Assembly (NCBI RefSeq): GCF_000019165.1
Contig: NC_010337.2
Span: 537,501 to 601,500, forward strand
Length of the DNA stretch: 64,000 nucleotides
Direction: 5' to 3'
DNA from: Heliomicrobium modesticaldum Ice1
GTDB lineage: Bacteria; Bacillota; Desulfitobacteriia; Heliobacteriales; Heliobacteriaceae
Shown: positions 26,744-64,000 of the stretch, piece after piece
How the letters are laid out: every line of letters begins with the position of its first letter
How positions within the stretch are numbered: position 1 is the first letter of the stretch
Made by a program: the position numbers and the translations under genes
Notes under the pieces: model-generated
Seen by the model: the letters and a program-made list of their open reading frames with translations, nothing else
Told to the model about the DNA's origin: nothing
Databases searched by the model: none

Positions 26744-26982
26744 GCTGGCTCCGAAACAAGAGCGTCCTGATCGTGGCAGCCCTGTTTTTGACGGGCGTTC
26801 CCCTGATCATGCATTTCACCCAGGATTTTGCCGGCGCCGATGACCAGGCGGGCGAAATGATCCAAAGCGTCGCTCCCTCCTATACGCCCTGGTTCGAATC
26901 CCTCTGGGAACCGGGTGAATCAGCGGAACCGCTGCTCTTCGGCCTTCAGGCCGCCGCCGGTGCAGCCTTCATCGCCTACTAG
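26740..26982 (+). pseudogene. cbiN: CbiN, 3-prime end cut off by IS insertion
   Basis: The remaining frame codes for 80 residues: an N-terminal membrane segment (VLIVAALFLTGVPLIM), an extracellular loop with GADDQAGEMI and PWFESLWEPGE, and the second membrane segment (LLFGLQAAAGAAFIAY). It stops at a TAG made by the IS junction, within codon 81. The missing tail is found past the element at 28896-28973; removing the IS and one TACTA restores a 104-residue CbiN ending in a TGA at 28971. The truncated protein keeps both membrane helices but loses the cytoplasmic tail, so partial function cannot be excluded. Confidence 0.88.
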
Positions 26983-28895
26983 AGTCTGTCTAAAAACCCC
27001 CTCAAGAGAGGGCAAAAAGCAAGACGTTTTTATATGGAAATTGGTGGAATTTAAAGGGAATTCGACTCTTCGCGTCGAAGGATATAGGTACAAAGACTGT
27101 TTATAGCGAGGCGATGTACCTTGTTTCGATTCGATGTGGACCCCCAAGTTAGCTTTTACGACTTTGCAGCCCTCTGGGACCAACTTGTGCCTGCCGATTC
27201 CGTCTTTCGCCTGTTTCGTGAATTGGCGCCCCTATTAATACAACCGGAGGATTTTACAGGTCTCTATTGCCTTGACAACGGACGTCCCAGTCATGCGGCC
27301 CGGCAGATGACGATGGCCTGCATGTTACAGGAAATGCTGGGCGAAACAGACCGGGGGATGGAAGCACAGACACGTGTGAACATCGAGGTCAAGTTTGCGT
27401 TAGGAATGGCCCTCGATGAACCGGGCATTGATCACGCCAATTTTGGCGTCCACCGGCAACGGCTCATCCAAAAGGAACTTGATAAGGTCTATCTCGATCG
27501 CTTTATCCGGTTGATGTACTACCTGGGCGTTTTGACAGGGAAAGAACCTTGGATAACGGACACGACCCATGTCATAGCTCCCATCAGTGCCCCCACGACC
27601 ATCGAACTGATCCGCCAAGCCATGCGCCTGTTGGTGCGTCTTTTGGCGAAGCAATACAGTGTTCCATGGCATGCAATCCCCCATGCCCCTCGGGCGGTAC
27701 GTTACCTGGAAACAGTGACGGAAGTGAAAGAGCATAACCTGGACGATAAGGCCAAAATGGAACGGCTTGTTGAAGTGGTCAGCGAGGCTGACGAACTGCT
27801 GGCCTACGTGGAGTCATCGGAGGCTTCGTGGAAGAAGAAGCCCGATGTCATTCATTACGCCCTTTTGCTTTGCCGTATCCTCCGTGAACGAATCATTCGG
27901 AAAGATGATGGAACTCTTGAGATAGCCCCCGGCGGTTCTGTCAAAGATATGATAGTTTCGGCTGTAGACAGCGAAGCCCGTTTCGGTTGTAAGGGCAAGA
28001 CGAAATGGCGCGGGTATAAGATGGCCATCGTCGAAGTCGGAAATTCCGGATTTATCGCCGCCGCCGAGGCCATGAAAGCCAACGACTATGACGGCTCCAG
28101 TCTGGTGCCGTTAGCGGATCAGCTTCCCACCGATTGTGTAGAAAACCCGACGATCATTGGAGATACCCACTATGGTGCGGGCGATGACCGTGTCACCCTC
28201 AAGGAAAAAGGCATTGACGTAGTGGCGCCACTTTCACCAAAGACAAAATGTGATATCCTCGCGGGCGAGGGATTTCAAGTTTCCGAAGACCAAACACAAC
28301 TGATCTGCCCGAGAGGAAAAGTCATCACCACCTATTCGGAAGTGGCAGATGGGAAGAACTTCGTGCTTCGCGCCAAGGACCATGATTGCAAGCACTGCCC
28401 TCGTTACACGACCTGTTTTAAAGAAAAGAAACATCGGCGCACGATTTTTATTCACAACGCCTATGGTGTCATGCTCGAGGCGGCAAAGCACTCCCAAACG
28501 AAAATCTATAAGGAACAGATGCGTCTTCGCAGCCGCATCGAAGCCAAGCAAAATGAACTGGTCAACCGTTACGGACTGCGCCGGGTTCGCCGTATCGGAA
28601 AACGAAATCTGGCTTATGCCGCCCGGCTCAGCGCGTTAGCGGCGAACTTTCAAAAACTCAACCGTCTACGAAATGATAAGAATGCAACCATGGTGTTGGA
28701 GGTGAGTGCCTTACGCGGTGTTGCTTTCAAAAAAGCCGCATAAGGTGCAAGGGGGAGATCTGCCCTTTTTGAGGAAAATCCTCAAAAAGGGCCGGTGAGA
28801 CCGATAAAAAGACTCTAGTTTTTTGCTGTTTGTATTAAAAAATCATGCTTTTGCAAGGGCTGGCTAGGGAATTTGCTTATTTTCTAGACGGCCTC
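26982..28895 (+). mobile_element. IS1182-like insertion sequence, copy 1
   Basis: 1914 bp. Imperfect terminal inverted repeats: left GAGTCTGTCTAAAAA, right (reverse complement) GAGGCCGTCTAGAAA. Flanked by a 5-bp target duplication TACTA (26977-26981 and 28896-28900); if a terminal T belongs to the element the duplication is 4 bp. A hairpin (28762-28792, arms GCCCTTTTTGAGGA and TCCTCAAAAAGGGC) follows the transposase gene, and a small hairpin (26999-27012) lies near the left end. Inserted in cbiN. It appears identical to copy 2 at 61045-62958. Confidence 0.95.
27121..28743 (+). CDS. IS1182-family transposase (copy 1)
   Basis: 540 residues from TTG 27121. N-terminal segment (FRLFRELAPLL, GRPSHAARQMTMACMLQEML) is the transposase InsH-type N-domain; then the DDE core: TDTTHVIAPIS (first Asp, about residue 143), FIGDTHYGAGDDR-like stretch (GDTHYGAGDDRV, about 350) and a C-terminal Cys-rich region (CKHCPRYTTC) followed by RLRSRIEAKQNELVNRYGLR with the final Glu region. 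It moves the element by DDE chemistry. Its product is identical to that of copy 2, so both are probably active or recent. Confidence 0.93.
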   Translation: MFRFDVDPQVSFYDFAALWDQLVPADSVFRLFRELAPLLIQPEDFTGLYCLDNGRPSHAARQMTMACMLQEMLGETDRGMEAQTRVNIEVKFALGMALDEPGIDHANFGVHRQRLIQKELDKVYLDRFIRLMYYLGVLTGKEPWITDTTHVIAPISAPTTIELIRQAMRLLVRLLAKQYSVPWHAIPHAPRAVRYLETVTEVKEHNLDDKAKMERLVEVVSEADELLAYVESSEASWKKKPDVIHYALLLCRILRERIIRKDDGTLEIAPGGSVKDMIVSAVDSEARFGCKGKTKWRGYKMAIVEVGNSGFIAAAEAMKANDYDGSSLVPLADQLPTDCVENPTIIGDTHYGAGDDRVTLKEKGIDVVAPLSPKTKCDILAGEGFQVSEDQTQLICPRGKVITTYSEVADGKNFVLRAKDHDCKHCPRYTTCFKEKKHRRTIFIHNAYGVMLEAAKHSQTKIYKEQMRLRSRIEAKQNELVNRYGLRRVRRIGKRNLAYAARLSALAANFQKLNRLRNDKNATMVLEVSALRGVAFKKAA

Positions 28896-52902: not shown

Positions 52903-53835
52903 TCATTCATCAGAATAGTTCTTCCCGCCAGATACGATGCCATCCTGATCGTCCCAGATGCCTCCCGGCTTATCGTCGGATCCATCGTACCCTTCTATCA
53001 CCTCAGGCAGATTGATCCCCGAAAACAGCATCGATAAATCTTTGGCAACCCGCTCCAATAACCGTTTGTCATGAAATTGTTGACGACACGCCAACCGAAC
53101 TTCCCTCTCGATGTTTGCGACATCGTTTTTGCCGGCCACGGTGAATGCCACCGGTATTGTGGTGTCCGTTTTGTATATATCCGCCACGTCGTATACGAAA
53201 GACAACTGCTTTCCGGTGTGAATAAATCCAACCGCCGGAGAGTATCCCATCGATACGATAGCCGCATGGCAAACACCGTAGAGGCACGCATTAGCTGCTG
53301 ACAGCGCGCGATTGACGGGATCGGCGCTATTCCAATTTCCCCGGTCATAATTCCTGCCGGTCCATACGACACCATGTTCCTTGGCTAACCTGGCGTATAT
53401 CTGCCGGACGCGACCGCCTTCCATTCCGCGAATCTGCCGCAACGTCATCTCCGGCGAGACAGGTTCCCGGAACCTTAACTCGTACATTCTGCGAACGACC
53501 GCCATGCGAGTATCTGGATTACTCCATAATGACACTTGACGAAGCAGATTTGATGAACTGCGAGTTTCACCCATCCCTTGACCATATACCCGCAGCCCTC
53601 CCTCACCCACCCAAAGGACGCTACATCCACAGTCAGCAAGCGTACGCATGGCGGCATGGGAGACTTTTGTCCCTGGCCCCAACATCAACACACTTAAAGA
53701 CGCGCATGGAACCTGGACTTTTCCATCTTCCCGCCATAAGGCTATCGCTTTCGCCTCTTGCTCCACCACGGCATGCTCAACATAGAGGTAACTGATGCTG
53801 TCCGTCAGCCTGGGAAGTTCATGTAGATCGCGCAT
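52903..53835 (-). CDS. cas1: CRISPR integrase Cas1, type I-E
   Basis: 310 residues. N-terminal beta domain (SYLYVEHAVVEQEAKAIALW, LMLGPGTKVSHAAM) and a helical catalytic domain: RQIRGMEGGRVRQIYARLAK with the metal-binding Glu, then AVGFIHTGKQLSFVYDVADI with His and Asp. A slightly extended C-terminus rich in Asp/Gly. Cas1-Cas2 catalyses spacer acquisition. Three bases separate it from cas6e. All catalytic positions I can see are intact. Confidence 0.95.
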   Translation of the reverse strand: MRDLHELPRLTDSISYLYVEHAVVEQEAKAIALWREDGKVQVPCASLSVLMLGPGTKVSHAAMRTLADCGCSVLWVGEGGLRVYGQGMGETRSSSNLLRQVSLWSNPDTRMAVVRRMYELRFREPVSPEMTLRQIRGMEGGRVRQIYARLAKEHGVVWTGRNYDRGNWNSADPVNRALSAANACLYGVCHAAIVSMGYSPAVGFIHTGKQLSFVYDVADIYKTDTTIPVAFTVAGKNDVANIEREVRLACRQQFHDKRLLERVAKDLSMLFSGINLPEVIEGYDGSDDKPGGIWDDQDGIVSGGKNYSDE

Positions 53836-55205: not shown

Positions 55206-56366
55206 TCATTCCTCCCCTTGCTGCAACGCCGCCGTCAGTTCTTCCACCAACGCAGGAAAAGTGGATACCTGATCTGTTGTCATTTTCGGAGACTCGCATC
55301 CCATCAACAACAACCATCTCCGGTTTGGAGTTAGGCCGAAGCACTTTTCCGTCTCTTTCACATGATCAAGAAATGCGTTTACGCTGGCCTGCACCAAATC
55401 CATTTCCCCCCGAGCCGTAACCGGTTTGACGAAAGCGTTGGCGTAGCTGACAGGAATTTTTCGCTTTTTTACTTCCACCAGTACTGCCGAGGGCAGTTGC
55501 CGCGCCGCAAAGGAATTCTGTTTGCCGTCAGGTGAACAAAACACAAGCGATTCAATAAAGGCTTTTACGATATGCGCTGCATCCCTGGCAAGGTCCTGCC
55601 GTTCTTCAGCGGTGAGTTTTTTCAAGCGATCCGGACCGGCCAGATTGCGTTTCAACTCATCCATATCCACATTGAAGTACTTGTAATAGCAACAGGAATT
55701 GAACTCGGTGTCTCCGATCATGTCGGCGCCGCTATCACCGTCCCCCATTAAATCGTCAACAGCCGTAAAGTAATCAAACTCGCTGTCCACGCGGTGGGTA
55801 GAGATCGCATGTCCGACCTGAACCGATGCCTCCACATCGTTAAAGGCGGTAGAGGTGGTCATCCTGCCGAAAAGAGCCACATCCACCGTTACAGGACGCC
55901 AACCAACCAGTTCCGGGTCTTTTTGCAGTTCCTGCGCTTTGATCGCTTTCGCCTGCTTTACCGTCTTGTCCTTCAAATGGCGGAACAAACAGCGTGCGAT
56001 GACGCTCACATCTTCCTGAGTAAGAAAAATCGCCTGCGCTGTGATCTCATCGTCCCGCTCTTTCCCGTCTTTATTGCCTAAGCCGCTCGCCTTCCGAGCG
56101 CCGATTTTGGCCAGTTCCTCACTCAGGCCTAAGCGCATCAGTTCTTCTTTGACGAGAAAAGGCAGTTTGCGCGTGCGCATCCCCAACCGGCTCTCACCAA
56201 TGCTGTCTTGAAACAGCGGCGAACAGCGAATTGTGCGCTTCTGGCACTGACTGGAGATGCGACCCCGACGCACGCCGCCAAACATACAGTCTTTCGGGCT
56301 TCCGCTCTCATCCCGGTTCAGATTAGCCGGCGCATGGTTCTGCAGCACATGAATCTCTACCAACAT
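55206..56366 (-). CDS. cas7e: Cascade backbone subunit Cas7e (CasC)
   Basis: 386 residues. EIHVLQNHAPANLNRDESGS and PKDCMFGGVRRGRISSQCQK are the characteristic N-terminus of Cas7e; later FGRMTTSTAFNDVEASVQVG, HAISTHRVDSEFDYFTAVDD, and a C-terminal LPSAVLVEVKKRKIPVSYANAF. Six copies coat the crRNA spacer. Start overlaps the cas11 stop (TGATG). Confidence 0.94.
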   Translation of the reverse strand: MLVEIHVLQNHAPANLNRDESGSPKDCMFGGVRRGRISSQCQKRTIRCSPLFQDSIGESRLGMRTRKLPFLVKEELMRLGLSEELAKIGARKASGLGNKDGKERDDEITAQAIFLTQEDVSVIARCLFRHLKDKTVKQAKAIKAQELQKDPELVGWRPVTVDVALFGRMTTSTAFNDVEASVQVGHAISTHRVDSEFDYFTAVDDLMGDGDSGADMIGDTEFNSCCYYKYFNVDMDELKRNLAGPDRLKKLTAEERQDLARDAAHIVKAFIESLVFCSPDGKQNSFAARQLPSAVLVEVKKRKIPVSYANAFVKPVTARGEMDLVQASVNAFLDHVKETEKCFGLTPNRRWLLLMGCESPKMTTDQVSTFPALVEELTAALQQGEE

Positions 56367-56929
56367 CAGTTGTCCCCTCCGTCGTTTTCTTGTTCTTCTC
56401 CCGTACCATTAGATTTTGAGCCGAAAAATTCCCTGGCCCAGCGCTTTTGCACAATCCGACTCTTCCAGTGCCAAATTCGCAAGTCTGTCAGCAGTCCCGC
56501 CCAGTCAATGGGCACACGATTATCCACGAGACGCTTTACCACCTGAGGCAACCGATAAAACAACTCTTCCTGTGACGCATCCAACAATTTTGTGACCTTG
56601 CGCTGCCAACCATTGGCCCCATCCGCTTCAAACCCGTCTTTGCCTAGAAAATCGAGGAGAGAGCGGGCAAAAGACCGTTCCTCGGCCTCTTTTTCGGAGC
56701 GGTCAAGACAGCAAAGGCAGGCGATGAGAAACCAAATGTCCTCCTCCCATTCAGGGATGCTTCTCGGACACAGGCGGTAGAACAGCGGCAACGCGCCCCG
56801 TGATTCGGACAGCCGGCAGCCTGCGTTTCGTTTGAGCAAGGCCCGCTCCCCCGGCGTCAAGCTCTTAACACGTTGAATGAAGTCTTCCGCTTTATTTCGG
56901 ATCGCGTCTCCCCGGTTTGCATCATTCAT
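56366..56929 (-). CDS. cas11e: Cascade small subunit Cas11e (Cse2/CasB)
   Basis: 187 residues, helical. FIQRVKSLTPGERALLKRNAG and LPLFYRLCP, FLIACLCC, LPQVVKRLVDNRVPIDWAGL with WHWKSRIVQKRWAREFFG fit Cse2. It stabilises the R-loop in Cascade. Located between cas8e and cas7e, the standard I-E order. Confidence 0.92.
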   Translation of the reverse strand: MNDANRGDAIRNKAEDFIQRVKSLTPGERALLKRNAGCRLSESRGALPLFYRLCPRSIPEWEEDIWFLIACLCCLDRSEKEAEERSFARSLLDFLGKDGFEADGANGWQRKVTKLLDASQEELFYRLPQVVKRLVDNRVPIDWAGLLTDLRIWHWKSRIVQKRWAREFFGSKSNGTGEEQENDGGDN

Positions 56930-56938
56930 GACTGATGA

Positions 56939-58510
56939 TCACCGTCCTTTCTTTGCCGCATCTTCATCCTTCGAGGGAGACTTTACGCCGATGAACCTCA
57001 ATGAACGTCGCAGGTACTGTTCCGCCTGAATCTGACGGCGCATCGCCTCCGCGTCCGATACGTTTTCTTTCGTCGCTTCGGTAAAATAATCACTGGCTTT
57101 ATTTCTGATCTCTTTTGTCCATGCTTCCATAAGGGTCTCTAGGTGCTTGTCAGGGTCCTCTTCTTTCGCCGTCCCTGCCAGAACGCTTAGAAAAGCCAGA
57201 TAAGGCGCCTCCAGACTTAGCCAGTAGGCATCCTCAACACGCTGTCCCCATTCACCCGGCCAGATTTTTTGTTCCTTTTTTCCTTTTTTCTGTTTGATTT
57301 GAACACACATGTTGACGGCCTTGCGAAGCGCCCACGCCGCTTTTTCCGCATTGTTCATCGCCTGAAGCGCGAATTCTTCTCCGTTGGGGACTTGCTCTAA
57401 GCCGGCGGGCAACTGCAATTCCTCATAGCGCCAATCCAGGTACTTCATATTGCCATCCGTTTGAAGCCCATATACCTCGATGGTGGTCGTTTGTTGTTCA
57501 CATTCTAAGTAGATCGATGCTTGATTCAAGATGGGCGCTCGTTCATAACTGTTCTTCTCTTGAACGCCTTTACCGGCGCCGTCGATCAGCGCCAGCGGTC
57601 CTACATCCCGCCAAGTCTGTCGACCCCAGCGAGGTCTTACGAAACTCCGCCCTTTGTCGGTATTCACGACAGCGACATTGGGATCTCTCCACGTGTCCAC
57701 TCTCGCCTGAAACCCGGCTTCGAACACCATCTGCCGGACTCCCCATTGACAACTCCTGCCGCTGTATGTGCATTGGAACGGTCCCATTTCGGGAATCAAA
57801 GTGACACGACGCGGCTGCCATGTGAGCCCTTCCAAGAGCCTCGCCTCTGACCTTGTTTCCCCTCGTGAGGGACGCCGGTCTCGCCAGGCGGGAATGCCTC
57901 GATCTTGATCGGTAATCCAGTAATTCAGCAGCAGTGTTTCGAAGAGGTTATCTCCCTTTCTCCACACGTAATAAGGAGGGTTGCCGTTGATACTGGGAGA
58001 GAGTCCCTGCCCGCCGGCCGTAGTGAAGGGCGAAAGTGTGGTCATTATTCGGGCGCAAACGTCCGGCGCGAGGACATATTCGTCCTGAAGCCGGTGGTGA
58101 AAATGGATGACATTCGTTCCCGTCGGCAATTGGTGAAACAGTTCGGCAACTGACTTTCGTTTTACCTTTTCTTGTTCCCGAGGCGGAACCTGTAAAAAGG
58201 GCCGCTCCGCATCAAACAGGTCAAAATAGACACCGTATTTTTCCCAGTAGGCGTTCAGTTTCGTTTCGTCAAACTGCCCTTCTTCCATCAGTTCGAGTCG
58301 ACCCCGTTGACCTTTTAGCGGGAAAATATCGATTATAAGGGCCTGTAAAAAGCGATACAAACCAAACTGGATCAAGGGTGATTCATCAATGACTTCGCTC
58401 CATTCATGGGCTTTGGCAAGCACATCCCGCAAGTGAACGACGCAAATCCGTCCCTTCACATCCCGGACCGTCACCCATGGTTCTGTCAGTAAATCAAAGG
58501 CTGGTTGCAT
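56939..58510 (-). CDS. cas8e: Cascade large subunit Cas8e (Cse1/CasA)
   Basis: 523 residues. N-terminus FDLLTEPWVTVRDVKGRICV is typical of Cse1; then LIQFGLYRFLQALIIDIFP, PTGTNVIHFHH, RIMTTLSPFTTAGGQGLSPS, INGNPPYYVW, DQDRGIPAWRDRR. Recognises the PAM and recruits Cas3. Start overlaps the cas3 end by 17 bp, so translation is likely coupled to cas3, which matters because cas3 is broken upstream. Confidence 0.93.
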   Translation of the reverse strand: MQPAFDLLTEPWVTVRDVKGRICVVHLRDVLAKAHEWSEVIDESPLIQFGLYRFLQALIIDIFPLKGQRGRLELMEEGQFDETKLNAYWEKYGVYFDLFDAERPFLQVPPREQEKVKRKSVAELFHQLPTGTNVIHFHHRLQDEYVLAPDVCARIMTTLSPFTTAGGQGLSPSINGNPPYYVWRKGDNLFETLLLNYWITDQDRGIPAWRDRRPSRGETRSEARLLEGLTWQPRRVTLIPEMGPFQCTYSGRSCQWGVRQMVFEAGFQARVDTWRDPNVAVVNTDKGRSFVRPRWGRQTWRDVGPLALIDGAGKGVQEKNSYERAPILNQASIYLECEQQTTTIEVYGLQTDGNMKYLDWRYEELQLPAGLEQVPNGEEFALQAMNNAEKAAWALRKAVNMCVQIKQKKGKKEQKIWPGEWGQRVEDAYWLSLEAPYLAFLSVLAGTAKEEDPDKHLETLMEAWTKEIRNKASDYFTEATKENVSDAEAMRRQIQAEQYLRRSLRFIGVKSPSKDEDAAKKGR

Positions 58511-61044
58511 TGGGTTCCTCCTTCCCTAACCGAAATCCCAGTTCATCGTCGTACTCAATGCGGATTACATTTCCCCCTTTGCTTGTCCCCTCCCAAAATG
58601 AAGGAGAGCCTGGATGCATTGGCATCACACTCCACTGGCGATATGGCTTCAATGCTGGGAGTTCGCACCCGCTCAACCATTTTTCTGGCAATGACACATG
58701 ATACTTCATCCAATGATGCAATTGTTCGTGAGAAACGAGGCCTTGTCCCACCCGTTCCCATTCGTCCTTCGGCACCGCCAGCACGCTGCGCGTTTCACTA
58801 CCTATTCGCGTGACCGCATGCAGGTGACTGGAAACCTCTCCTTCGGAGACTTCTTCATTGACTGCAAAAATGGGCGTAACGGCCAACTCACTTTTCAACG
58901 GTTTTGGATATAGCGACTCCCGCGCTCGTTGCTGCTGTTCCACTTGATTTTTTCGATACTCCTCCCGGACCGACGCTAACGAGTAGAGCCATTCGTCCGG
59001 CACGTTTGCGATTTCATCATCATAAACGGATTCAATAAGGGGACGGAAATCTTGGGGTAACTGGAATTGGTTTCGTTTTTGCAAGACAGCCAGGGTTTTC
59101 AGCAGCACAAGTGGTTCGTACACTGCCCCTGTCTTTCCCCAATAGAATCGTTCCGCTATTTCAGGCGCAAAGATGGAAACATTTGCTTTGCTCTCGGCGT
59201 GATTCAACCGTCTTGGTCGTTCGTGCCGCCAGAGACGACCGATGCGCTGGAGCAACAAATCGATGGGGGCCAGTTCCGTGAACAGCACATCAAAGTCGAT
59301 GTCCAGCGATTGCTCGACTACCTGAGTGGCCACCAAAACAGCCCGTTTCGGCCGACGTGCGGGATCCTGCAAACTGCCTTTATCCAACCAACGGAGAACC
59401 TTGTCCTCAATTGCTTTGCGCCGTCCCGCAGTGAAACGGGCGTGGTACAGCAGCAACTCAACATCACTCGGCAAGCGACCTTTTCTATGTAGTTTTTTTA
59501 GTTTTCGGAAAACTTGTTGCGCCATATACACGGTGTTGACTACCACGCCAGCACAACCACTATCATGTGCGTCTGCCCAGTCCAAAACGGCGTTGACGAT
59601 CGCTTCAGCGTTTTCTAACGCGCCGGGAAGCATTCGCAGGTTGTACTCCTGATTTGGCCGCGAGGGTAAGACAGGAAATTCGCAAGTCTTGGCGTCAACG
59701 GCTACGGTGACCAACGGATACTGTTGATTCACTGCACCTTCTATGACATCCCCGCCATATGCCTCAAGCAGTTGTTTACGCCGCTTAACTGGGAGCGTCG
59801 CCGATAAAAGAACAACGGGAATGCTCAGATGTCCGCACCAGGCAAGCAATTGATCAATGATGGTGTTCATATAGGTGTCATAGGCGTGGACTTCGTCGAT
59901 CAACAGTCCCTTCCCCGCAAGTCCCAACAACCGCAGGCAGCCGAACTTCACGCGCATGGCGGCCAGCATCGCCTGATCCACCGTGCCCACCCCGTAAGGG
60001 GCCAATAGCGCCCGCTTTTTCGGACGGAACCAGTCTTCGCGCTCGTCTTCCTCCCAATATTGTTTTTGCAAATCCAACAACCAAGCCATCCCGTGAACGA
60101 GTCGCAACCCTTTCTCGGTTCCTTGATTGGAGAGCAACTCTTGCACCCGAGAATACATCTGATTGGCCGTCGCCGCAGTCGGCAGCGCCACATACATACC
60201 ATCCCCACCGCTGCCAGCGACCCAACAGTTTAATAGATAGATGCCAGCCTCAGACTTCCCTTCTCCCATCGGGGCTTCGATGATCGCCAACCCTCCGGTT
60301 TTCTCACTGCGGGCAATTTGTTCACATAGGGCTTGCAGCGGCCTCAGGGACGGCAAGTGGAGATGTCTCCAAAAGCGGAGAAAGGAGTCCTCTTCTGTCA
60401 TCTCTGCGTTTATTGGTTTTTTGCCGCTTAAACCTACTTGGTCAAGGAATTGCAACGCTAGGACTTCGAAGTTCTTCTGCTTGGCCTGGTGCCAATCAGG
60501 AATATCCCCTCCAAAAAACGCTTCGGAAGACGCTATCCAATCAGCCAGCACGGTGATTCCAGACAGCAACATGCCAAAGGTACTGTGATCGGGGAAATCT
60601 TGTTGCTTCCAAATATCCATTTGAAAAAAACGAAGCAACTCTTCCACTACCTGTAATCTCAGTTGTTTCCAAAGTTCATTTATACTCGCACTACCGTCGT
60701 CAACCCGCTTGCAAGGGACAACAAATGAACCATGGTGTCCCTGTAACGCCAGACCCACTGTTCCGGAGCTAAAACGCCCCCATCCCTTCGATCTCAGCCA
60801 TTGTTCCAGCCAAAGGCGTGTATAAGCCTCATGGCGAATGTCGACGCGCGAGGCATGTGGGAGAAGCTCTCGTTCAATCCAATCCTGGACAACGGGCAGC
60901 CCTATGCCTTTTACCTGAAATTGCGCATGACACTTTCCAATATCATGCATAGCAGCGAGAAAAGCAGTGCGAATAATCGCTTCTTCTTTCGTCCAACCGG
61001 AAGCACGTTGCAGTTTGTCGACCAGACCGGAAAATGGGCTACGT
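58494..61044 (-). pseudogene. cas3: Cas3 helicase-nuclease, main part (5-prime end cut off by IS)
   Basis: From the IS junction (last original base 61039) the frame reads SPFSGLVDKLQRASGW, KEEAIIRTAFLAAMHDIGKC and then 818 more residues from ATG 60950. HD nuclease motif MHDIGK is present. Helicase motifs: APMGEGKSEAGIYLL (Walker A), LLIDEVHAYDTYM (DEVH), LSATLPVKRR, QVVEQSLDIDFDVLFTELAP, QRIGRLWRHERP. The upstream 32 codons lie at 62959-63055. With the IS removed the protein is 880 residues, normal for I-E Cas3. An internal start at 60950 could give a protein lacking the first HD-domain helices. Confidence 0.92.
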
Positions 61045-62958
61045 GAGTCTGTCTAAAAACCCCCTCAAGAGAGGGCAAAAAGCAAGACGTTTTTATATGG
61101 AAATTGGTGGAATTTAAAGGGAATTCGACTCTTCGCGTCGAAGGATATAGGTACAAAGACTGTTTATAGCGAGGCGATGTACCTTGTTTCGATTCGATGT
61201 GGACCCCCAAGTTAGCTTTTACGACTTTGCAGCCCTCTGGGACCAACTTGTGCCTGCCGATTCCGTCTTTCGCCTGTTTCGTGAATTGGCGCCCCTATTA
61301 ATACAACCGGAGGATTTTACAGGTCTCTATTGCCTTGACAACGGACGTCCCAGTCATGCGGCCCGGCAGATGACGATGGCCTGCATGTTACAGGAAATGC
61401 TGGGCGAAACAGACCGGGGGATGGAAGCACAGACACGTGTGAACATCGAGGTCAAGTTTGCGTTAGGAATGGCCCTCGATGAACCGGGCATTGATCACGC
61501 CAATTTTGGCGTCCACCGGCAACGGCTCATCCAAAAGGAACTTGATAAGGTCTATCTCGATCGCTTTATCCGGTTGATGTACTACCTGGGCGTTTTGACA
61601 GGGAAAGAACCTTGGATAACGGACACGACCCATGTCATAGCTCCCATCAGTGCCCCCACGACCATCGAACTGATCCGCCAAGCCATGCGCCTGTTGGTGC
61701 GTCTTTTGGCGAAGCAATACAGTGTTCCATGGCATGCAATCCCCCATGCCCCTCGGGCGGTACGTTACCTGGAAACAGTGACGGAAGTGAAAGAGCATAA
61801 CCTGGACGATAAGGCCAAAATGGAACGGCTTGTTGAAGTGGTCAGCGAGGCTGACGAACTGCTGGCCTACGTGGAGTCATCGGAGGCTTCGTGGAAGAAG
61901 AAGCCCGATGTCATTCATTACGCCCTTTTGCTTTGCCGTATCCTCCGTGAACGAATCATTCGGAAAGATGATGGAACTCTTGAGATAGCCCCCGGCGGTT
62001 CTGTCAAAGATATGATAGTTTCGGCTGTAGACAGCGAAGCCCGTTTCGGTTGTAAGGGCAAGACGAAATGGCGCGGGTATAAGATGGCCATCGTCGAAGT
62101 CGGAAATTCCGGATTTATCGCCGCCGCCGAGGCCATGAAAGCCAACGACTATGACGGCTCCAGTCTGGTGCCGTTAGCGGATCAGCTTCCCACCGATTGT
62201 GTAGAAAACCCGACGATCATTGGAGATACCCACTATGGTGCGGGCGATGACCGTGTCACCCTCAAGGAAAAAGGCATTGACGTAGTGGCGCCACTTTCAC
62301 CAAAGACAAAATGTGATATCCTCGCGGGCGAGGGATTTCAAGTTTCCGAAGACCAAACACAACTGATCTGCCCGAGAGGAAAAGTCATCACCACCTATTC
62401 GGAAGTGGCAGATGGGAAGAACTTCGTGCTTCGCGCCAAGGACCATGATTGCAAGCACTGCCCTCGTTACACGACCTGTTTTAAAGAAAAGAAACATCGG
62501 CGCACGATTTTTATTCACAACGCCTATGGTGTCATGCTCGAGGCGGCAAAGCACTCCCAAACGAAAATCTATAAGGAACAGATGCGTCTTCGCAGCCGCA
62601 TCGAAGCCAAGCAAAATGAACTGGTCAACCGTTACGGACTGCGCCGGGTTCGCCGTATCGGAAAACGAAATCTGGCTTATGCCGCCCGGCTCAGCGCGTT
62701 AGCGGCGAACTTTCAAAAACTCAACCGTCTACGAAATGATAAGAATGCAACCATGGTGTTGGAGGTGAGTGCCTTACGCGGTGTTGCTTTCAAAAAAGCC
62801 GCATAAGGTGCAAGGGGGAGATCTGCCCTTTTTGAGGAAAATCCTCAAAAAGGGCCGGTGAGACCGATAAAAAGACTCTAGTTTTTTGCTGTTTGTATTA
62901 AAAAATCATGCTTTTGCAAGGGCTGGCTAGGGAATTTGCTTATTTTCTAGACGGCCTC
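61045..62958 (+). mobile_element. IS1182-like insertion sequence, copy 2
   Basis: 1914 bp, as copy 1, in the same orientation. Terminal repeats as in copy 1. Flanked by the 5-bp duplication TACGT (61040-61044 and 62959-62963). Inserted in codon 33 of cas3, with its transposase antisense to the cas operon. A stem CCCTC-AAGA-GAGGG with flanking A-run near the left end (61062-61075) could act as a weak terminator on the minus strand. Confidence 0.95.
61184..62806 (+). CDS. IS1182-family transposase (copy 2)
   Basis: 540 residues from TTG 61184, identical in translation to the copy at 27121. Same DDE and Cys-rich features. Confidence 0.93.
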   Translation: MFRFDVDPQVSFYDFAALWDQLVPADSVFRLFRELAPLLIQPEDFTGLYCLDNGRPSHAARQMTMACMLQEMLGETDRGMEAQTRVNIEVKFALGMALDEPGIDHANFGVHRQRLIQKELDKVYLDRFIRLMYYLGVLTGKEPWITDTTHVIAPISAPTTIELIRQAMRLLVRLLAKQYSVPWHAIPHAPRAVRYLETVTEVKEHNLDDKAKMERLVEVVSEADELLAYVESSEASWKKKPDVIHYALLLCRILRERIIRKDDGTLEIAPGGSVKDMIVSAVDSEARFGCKGKTKWRGYKMAIVEVGNSGFIAAAEAMKANDYDGSSLVPLADQLPTDCVENPTIIGDTHYGAGDDRVTLKEKGIDVVAPLSPKTKCDILAGEGFQVSEDQTQLICPRGKVITTYSEVADGKNFVLRAKDHDCKHCPRYTTCFKEKKHRRTIFIHNAYGVMLEAAKHSQTKIYKEQMRLRSRIEAKQNELVNRYGLRRVRRIGKRNLAYAARLSALAANFQKLNRLRNDKNATMVLEVSALRGVAFKKAA

Positions 62959-63055
62959 TACGTGTCAATAGACATCGAACCGTGCATCCGACGGCAGCCA
63001 TATGGACCAACAGGGGTTGAAAAGGATCTGACTTAGCCCAAATTTTATGTAACAT
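62959..63055 (-). pseudogene. cas3: 5-prime fragment of cas3 with native start
   Basis: ATG 63055 lies six or seven bases behind GGGGAGG. The frame reads MLHKIWAKSDPFQPLLVHMA, then AVGCTVRCLLTR, and is interrupted in codon 33 at the TACGT duplication. HMAAV is the H...V pattern of the first conserved His in Cas3 HD domains (HLxDVA in relatives). In the present allele the frame continues 10 codons into the IS and stops at TAG. Joining it to 61039 keeps the frame. Confidence 0.88.
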
Positions 63056-63352
63056 CAGAACCTCCCCAAGTGTTTTCTCGTTTTATTGATTTATTGAATT
63101 CGTGTAGCGCTGCTACTATAGCATTTTGTACTTTATTGCTATACCCCACCCAGAACCTACGCAATCGAAATAGCACCAAGCAAATGAGCGACCTCTTACG
63201 GTTAACCGATTTAATGGCGATACCAATTCTCTCTTTAAATGTTTAAATTATCCAGTCGACAGTTGCATTTATCCTACGCAAGTTTATGGAAAAAAACACC
63301 TTGTTTATACCAGTGCTTCGATAGGCAATCCCACCCTTTCACCCTTGGTCAG
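63056..63352. other. Upstream region of the cas operon
   Basis: About 300 bp, AT-rich. A -10-like TATAGT or TATAGC occurs on the minus strand around 63110-63150, but no -35 is good enough to fix the promoter. No ORF recognised. The native cas promoter should be here. Confidence 0.4.
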
Positions 63353-64000
63353 CTAGGCAGTAGATAAGCCCCACTCCCAGACCCAACGATATAGATGTAA
63401 AGATACCCACCTCGTCGCTTCGCGCATCTCATCAATGAGATATCGAAGCGGCACATCTCGATGACGAGAGGCAGGGAGGTGGTGAAAGAAAAACAATCGC
63501 TTAAGATTAAAAGCCAGCACTTGAAATCCGATCATCGCTTTGATCGCCACCGAATCGTGCACGAAGCAGTGGTCCAAGGCGTTGAACGTCTTAAGGTTGC
63601 GAAATCCAATATTCTCAATATCCCAACGAGCGGCGGCAATTTGTGCGATCGTCTGGGTATCCGCTTTTTCGGATGAGCATGTGGTTGCTATCCAGCGCTC
63701 CACCACATCAGTGACAAAGACTTCTTTGTTTGCTTCGATGACTGTCTTGTTGGTATGACGAATGATTTTTACGATTCGCATGGGCACGCGAACTTGCGGC
63801 CATTGTGCCAATCCCTCTTCGTCCCAAGCTTGAACGTAAACGGTATTCCCTTTTCCATCTCTTTCTTCCCAAGTGGAGTCCGGAAGCCGGTTCGCAAAGC
63901 AGGCATTTGCCTCTTTCATTATCCGTCGACGTTCTTCTTTCATGCGAACAACTACATGAGCGCCTGCATCCAGAGCGGCATGAATGACGGGTGCTTTGGC
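63353..64000 (-). CDS. Transposase, DDE type (IS4-like superfamily), partial at window edge
   Basis: The frame is open to the right edge; codons before ATG 63943 read AKAPVIHAALDAGAHVVVRM, so the true start lies outside. The visible part has AARWDIENIGFRNLKTFNAL, the C-terminal catalytic Glu region (Y/W-x2-RW-x-IE), and a hydrophobic LAFNLKRLFFFHH tail. It is unrelated to the IS1182-like copies. Its end faces the cas operon promoter region about 300 bp away. Confidence 0.78.
   Translation of the reverse strand, partial: AKAPVIHAALDAGAHVVVRMKEERRRIMKEANACFANRLPDSTWEERDGKGNTVYVQAWDEEGLAQWPQVRVPMRIVKIIRHTNKTVIEANKEVFVTDVVERWIATTCSSEKADTQTIAQIAAARWDIENIGFRNLKTFNALDHCFVHDSVAIKAMIGFQVLAFNLKRLFFFHHLPASRHRDVPLRYLIDEMREATRWVSLHLYRWVWEWGLSTA

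What the first reader, a model, noticed from the sequence alone, without database searches (positions are those of the whole stretch)
58494..63055. cas3 broken by an IS that can be removed on paper to restore an exact 880-residue gene
The 5-bp duplication TACGT marks the insertion. Removing 61045-62958 plus one TACGT joins 32 codons behind a good ribosome-binding site (start 63055) to the rest of cas3 without frame change. The insertion lies inside the HD nuclease domain, between the first conserved His (LVHMAAV) and the MHDIGK motif. All other cas genes look intact, so the break is recent or the rest is kept for another use.
Basis: partly seen in the sequence, partly recalled or inferred. Interest (0 to 1): 0.72.

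Follow-up and report, generated by a model that had tools for sequence, protein, structure and literature searches.

The report
Jumping gene broke a CRISPR nuclease
A recently multiplied jumping gene has cut the DNA-shredding gene (cas3) of one of two CRISPR immune systems in the photosynthetic soil bacterium Heliomicrobium modesticaldum; this is a known way for such systems to die, but here a sister species shows the same chromosomal slot with the same memory-writing genes and a completely different set of attack genes.

Summary
A 1914-bp IS1182-family element (61045-62958), flanked by the 5-bp duplication TACGT, interrupts type I-E cas3. The flanks without the IS and one TACGT read as one 880-codon ORF. 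It aligns across the junction without a gap to other type I-E Cas3 proteins and completes the Cas3 HD-domain match. The genome has 31 copies of this IS. Of the 30 with exact ends, 19 are identical over 1914 bp and 23 keep a perfect 5-bp duplication, so the hit is recent. A second IS sits 96 bp upstream of the cas3 start. The array behind cas2 is down to one spacer. Three of 18 spacers match elements in a congeneric genome, all next to the I-E motif AAG, so the system once worked. The sister species carries, at the same site, orthologous cas1-cas2 (98-99% amino-acid identity, dS like the flanks) with an unrelated cas3-to-cas6 block (25-36%): a clean effector-module exchange. Both IS loss of cas genes and I-E module exchange are documented kinds, so this is a well-resolved new example. 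"Kept for another use" has no positive support.

The parts
62964..63055 (-). 5' fragment of cas3 (start codon ATG at 63055; with the adjoining TACGT copy, 32 codons, first HD-domain His18)
   Evidence: alignment to type I-E Cas3 homologues and to Tfu Cas3 His37
61045..62958 (+). IS1182-family insertion sequence, 1914 bp, imperfect terminal repeats GAGTCTGTCTA / GAGGCCGTCTA
   Evidence: 31 copies in the genome
61184..62806 (+). IS1182 transposase, 540 aa, opposite to cas3
   Evidence: NF033551 313 bits, cut-off 270
61040..61044 (.). target duplication TACGT (left)
62959..62963 (.). target duplication TACGT (right)
58494..61044 (-). 3' part of cas3, open from the IS edge; first ATG 60950 (818 codons); HD, Walker A (GEGKS), DEVH, SAT and QRIGR motifs kept
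56939..58510 (-). cas8e (cse1), 523 aa; start overlaps the end of cas3
   Evidence: TIGR02547, PF09481 full length
56366..56929 (-). cse2 (cas11), 187 aa
   Evidence: TIGR02548
55206..56366 (-). cas7e, 386 aa
   Evidence: TIGR01869
54511..55281 (-). cas5e
   Evidence: TIGR01868
53838..54524 (-). cas6e, 228 aa from the internal Met
   Evidence: TIGR01907, profile starts at residue 43 of the long ORF
52903..53835 (-). cas1e, 310 aa; 98% identical to the sister species
   Evidence: TIGR03638
52613..52906 (-). cas2e, 97 aa; 99% identical to the sister species
   Evidence: TIGR01873
52507..52594 (-). collapsed second CRISPR array: two degenerate repeats around one spacer, leader end of 19 nt shared with array 1
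   Evidence: the sister species has about 22 repeats here
63151..64000 (-). part within the window of a second IS (IS4-like, 1765 bp in all, to position 64915 beyond the window), 9-bp duplication TACCCCACC, transposase on - strand, 96 bp upstream of the cas3 start
   Evidence: 11 near-full copies in the genome
63056..63150 (-). remaining cas3 upstream region with an extended -10-like TGCTATAGT; the main I-E array (18 repeats, positions 65008-66096) lies beyond the second IS, outside the window
   Evidence: promoter reading is inference

Best explanation
[quoted passage not shown] The IS separates the first metal-binding His of the HD nuclease from the rest of the enzyme. The 5' reading frame stops ten codons into the IS, and the 3' ORF has no good start site, so no working Cas3 can be made (shown by sequence; loss of function inferred). 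Because cas8e starts inside the end of cas3 and the following genes overlap or abut, and the IS end facing them carries a hairpin with a T run, the insertion probably also lowers expression of Cascade and cas1-cas2 (inference). The system had worked before: its spacers match plasmid-like elements in a sister species, all with AAG motifs. The broken effector block is itself one of two alternative blocks that have occupied this slot, between a vertically inherited array and cas1-cas2, since the two species diverged.
For: Exact IS ends and duplication, 31 copies, 19 identical. 880-aa join with gapless homology across the junction. Complete HD profile only when joined. His18 aligns with His37 of the solved Tfu Cas3; that His37 binds metal is from my own knowledge. 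No other I-E-like cas3 in the genome; the only other cas3-like gene is the distant one of the second CRISPR system. 5' frame ends '...TRRGRLENKQIP*' in the IS, and no in-frame ATG, GTG or TTG lies between the IS edge and the Met of MHDIGK. Hairpin plus T run at the IS edge. Protospacers with AAG. Effector block exchanged, cas1-cas2 orthologous.
Against: No expression or activity data could be examined. An outward promoter in the IS or a promoter inside cas3 could keep Cascade expressed. The joined protein has Ala where nearly all homologues have Asp in the HxxD motif, so full activity before the insertion is not certain. No IS-free allele of the same species was available.
Confidence: 0.92

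Rival explanations
1. Cascade, crRNAs and Cas1-Cas2 are kept and used without Cas3, for example for transcriptional silencing or for recording spacers only.
For: All other cas genes are full length and cas1-cas2 show dN far below dS against the sister species, so they were under purifying selection for most of their history.
Against: No spacer matches the own genome above chance; the downstream array has shrunk to one spacer; two ISs lie in the promoter-proximal part; the gene overlaps predict polarity. Intact neighbours are expected anyway if the break is young.
Confidence: 0.07
2. The 818-codon 3' ORF is translated from ATG 60950 and gives a shortened but useful Cas3 (helicase without full nuclease).
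For: The ORF is open and keeps the HD, Walker A and helicase motifs; its first Met sits exactly before HDIGK.
Against: No ribosome-binding site upstream of 60950, the first metal-binding His and about 62 residues of the HD domain are missing, and a hairpin with a T run lies at the IS edge.
Confidence: 0.04
3. The insertion was selected, not merely tolerated: losing I-E interference let the cell keep an element or chromosome segment that the array targets.
For: This is shown experimentally for type I-E loci elsewhere (PMC10359306). Two ISs in about 10 kb of I-E locus against 0.14 expected, P about 0.009 (post hoc). The matched elements live in a sister species.
Against: No spacer of this array matches the present genome. 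A neutral IS burst also broke other genes, e.g. cbiN, and entered the type I-A array.
Confidence: 0.2
4. Assembly artefact: the IS copy was placed wrongly in an intact cas3.
For: Multicopy IS elements are classic mis-assembly sites (general knowledge).
Against: The single-contig genome places most of the 30 exact-ended copies with their own locus-specific 5-bp duplications (23 of 30), including this one.
Confidence: 0.02

Closest known systems
Natural IS transposition into cas genes (PMC10359306: 163 cases, 20 IS families, 57 genera, incl. IS10 in type I-E of Erwinia amylovora)
   Same: IS with target duplication inside a cas gene of an otherwise complete locus; the authors likewise rebuilt the gene by removing the IS and one duplication, and showed loss of interference.
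   Different: Here an IS1182-family element hits cas3 in a heliobacterium, with a second IS upstream and a collapsed array. The main text does not name this case; its supplement could not be read, so it may be listed there.
[quoted passage not shown] coli type I-E (Almendros et al. 2014, not held; cited in PMC4390879 and PMC12736100)
   Same: cas3-to-cas6 block replaced by a block of about 30% identity while cas1-cas2 stay.
   Different: In E. coli the two cas1/cas2 versions are 84-86% identical as proteins (PMC12736100); here they are 98-99% with dS equal to the flanking genes, so the exchange is dated after the species split and the boundary is at the cas1 start codon.
Type I-E CRISPR-Cas of Thermobifida fusca / E. 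coli
   Same: Gene order cas3-cas8e-cse2-cas7-cas5-cas6-cas1-cas2, 29-nt repeats, AAG motif.
   Different: cas3 interrupted; spacers in array 1 of 32-35 nt rather than 32-33.
Type I-A system of the same genome, used for genome editing (reviewed in PMC10758571; repeat in PMC12016533)
   Same: Second CRISPR-Cas of the cell, at about 267-284 kb; published repeat found there exactly.
   Different: Different cas3, repeats and effector; reported active, so the cell is not without CRISPR defence.

Membership tests
Type I-E CRISPR-Cas | Complete gene set cas3, cas8e, cse2, cas7, cas5, cas6e, cas1e, cas2e in one operon | tested here: met
   NCBIfam and Pfam, subtype-specific cut-offs passed for all genes except the full-length Cas3 model
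Type I-E CRISPR-Cas | 29-nt GC-rich palindromic repeats with 32-33-nt spacers | tested here: inconclusive
   18 repeats of 29 nt; spacers are 32-35 nt, 7 of 18 of 34 nt or more
Type I-E CRISPR-Cas | AAG-type protospacer-adjacent motif | tested here: met
   4 of 4 protospacer sites (3 spacers) have 5'-AAG
Type I-E CRISPR-Cas | Working Cas3 nuclease-helicase | tested here: not met
   gene interrupted by the IS; the locus is a broken member by sequence, activity not assayed
IS1182 family insertion sequence | IS1182-type DDE transposase | tested here: met
   NF033551 313 bits, cut-off 270
IS1182 family insertion sequence | Terminal inverted repeats and short target duplication | tested here: met
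   imperfect terminal repeats; 5-bp duplications in 23 of 30 exact-ended copies
Type I-E effector-module exchange | Orthologous cas1-cas2 and flanks, non-orthologous effector block at one site | tested here: met
   identities, dS, DNA match beginning at the cas1 start codon, trees and AU tests for cas3 and cas7

The most novel reading that the evidence does not exclude
H. modesticaldum would then be caught in the broken stage and its sister in the renewed stage.
Probability: 0.12. Interest if true: 0.55.

Novelty: new member of a known kind. Interest (0 to 1): 0.33.

Why it matters
H. modesticaldum is the genetic model of the only phototrophic Firmicutes and is edited with its own CRISPR system. 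The result says that its type I-E system most likely cannot cut and why, and gives ready spacer-protospacer pairs with AAG motifs to test it. The pair of species is also a clean natural experiment on effector-module exchange, because cas1-cas2 diverged as the flanking genes did while everything from cas3 to cas6 was replaced.

Tried and rejected
Self-targeting as the reason for the break: no spacer match in the own genome above chance. Matches to known phages or plasmids: none. IS-free allele of the same gene in relatives: the family search finds no close orthologue, best 34% in G004; genome contigs with Cas3 found nothing, and with Cas1 only distant relatives, since near genomes are left out. 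Naming the sister species G004: not possible with unnamed handles. Polarising the exchange (which species holds the newcomer): G+C at third positions is low for all cas genes in both species, and the Cas1 tree does not resolve the outgroup. Outward sigma-70 promoter at the IS edge facing cas3: no convincing match. The Baker 2019, Sattley 2008 and Almendros 2014 papers are not held.

Full report
Identity of the genome. The window is bases 537501-601500 of a single-contig 3,075,407-base genome. The type I-A CRISPR repeat published for H. modesticaldum (PMC12016533) occurs exactly, 19 times, in this genome.

The insertion. On the + strand the IS starts GAGTCTGTCTA at 61045 and ends TAGACGGCCTC at 62958, with TACGT on both sides. 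Twenty copies taken from the genome share both ends exactly, and almost every one has its own 5-bp duplication. Of 31 copies in all, 30 have exact ends, 23 an exact duplication, and 19 are identical over all 1914 bp, including the one in cas3. The transposase passes the IS1182 model cut-off. A burst this uniform is recent.

The gene. The flanks without the IS and one TACGT give 880 codons with no stop. Aligned with type I-E Cas3 proteins from the phylum, the 5' piece supplies the WAK...H motif and the junction is gapless. The HD profile becomes complete, 116 against 73 bits. His18 aligns with His37 of Thermobifida fusca Cas3, a metal ligand by my knowledge of that structure. All other nuclease and helicase motifs are present. 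One oddity is Ala21 where nearly all homologues have Asp (HxxD).

Consequences. Read from its own start, the gene makes 32 Cas3 residues and stops ten codons into the IS. Downstream there is a stop just inside the IS, then no ATG, GTG or TTG until Met 60950, which has no ribosome-binding site. The IS end facing the rest of cas3 carries a hairpin followed by a T run. cas8e begins within the last codons of cas3 and the later genes overlap or abut, so polarity on Cascade and on cas1-cas2 is likely, but this is inference.

A 1765-bp IS4-like element with a 9-bp duplication (TACCCCACC) occupies 63151-64915, 96 bp from the cas3 start codon, between the main array and cas3. The main array (18 repeats) lies just outside the window at 65008-66096. 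The array behind cas2 consists of two degenerate repeats and one spacer; the sister species has about 22 repeats between the same leader and the same terminal repeat.

The system once worked. Of 18 spacers none matches the own genome above chance, a phage record or a plasmid record. Three match the congeneric genome G004 at four places: sp1 33/33, sp8 31/32 and 30/32, sp15 29/33. All four protospacers are preceded by AAG, the type I-E motif. The sp1 site lies in a gene next to a TraG/VirD4-like coupling protein, an actin-like segregation protein and a replication-relaxation protein; a ParB-like gene lies near the sp15 site.

The surroundings. The genes on both sides of the locus (SpoVR; a 225-aa protein and an amino-acid-binding protein) are 94, 88 and 93% identical in G004, and G004 has a type I-E locus between them. 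There cas1 and cas2 are 98 and 99% identical, with dS 0.21 and 0.13 against 0.20-0.26 for the flanks, so they came down vertically. But cas3, cas8e, cse2, cas7, cas5 and cas6 are only 25-36% identical. The DNA match begins at the start codon of cas1. For cas3, cas8e, cse2, cas7 and cas5 the H. modesticaldum proteins fit genome G122 best (cas3 also G149), while those of G004 fit a second group (G027, G316, G354, G198). Trees place the two Cas1 together (100/99), while Cas7 and Cas3 of H. modesticaldum group with G122 (and G149) at 100/100, and a clade of the two species is rejected (AU p < 1e-60 for both). The third congener, G003, has the same flanks without the locus. So the effector block was exchanged in one of the two lineages after they split. 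Which one is unresolved. A decayed second copy of the SpoVR end and leader lies before cas3 in G004, a possible scar of the exchange.

Known or new. IS inactivation of cas genes is common (163 natural cases; PMC10359306). Type I-E effector exchange is documented in E. coli (Almendros 2014, cited in PMC4390879 and PMC12736100). Both parts of this case are new members of known kinds. The chance of two ISs in the 9.9 kb of the I-E locus is about 0.009 under uniform insertion, which hints at relaxed constraint but is post hoc.

Verdict. 'Kept for another use' is not excluded but has no support. The specific value is a sequence-level ruling-out of the I-E interference step in a genetic model organism and a well-dated effector exchange beside it.

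Noticed in passing
26982-28895: A second copy of the same IS1182 element, duplication TACTA, interrupts cbiN of a CbiM-N-Q-O cobalt transporter near its C-terminus; the flanks without IS and one duplication read a full CbiN (PF02553).
   Followed up: partly
L128:3100-14101 and window 52613-66096: Sister species G004 has the same leaders, repeats and cas1-cas2 (98-99%) at the same site but a non-orthologous cas3-cas6 block; the exchange boundary is at the cas1 start codon.
   Followed up: yes
L128:5111-5280: Decayed second copy of the SpoVR 3' end and CRISPR leader between array 1 and cas3 in G004 (78% over 65 nt, 77% over 52 nt), a possible scar of recombination.
   Followed up: partly
L043:13508-14597 (window positions 65008-66096): H. 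modesticaldum I-E spacers are 32-35 nt (7 of 18 of 34 nt or more) against 32-33 nt in G004 (0 of 37), Fisher p 0.00016, although Cas1 differs at 6 residues and Cas2 at 1. Unexplained.
   Followed up: partly
L230:12970-15007: IS1182 copies also lie inside the type I-A CRISPR array and next to it (in a broken copy of the second IS), and the IS4-like element lies between cas1 and the effector genes of the I-A system, which is nevertheless reported active.
   Followed up: partly
window 62993-63004 (codons 18-21 of cas3): HxxD motif of Cas3 reads HMAA: Ala in place of an Asp conserved in nearly all homologues aligned; effect unknown.
   Followed up: no
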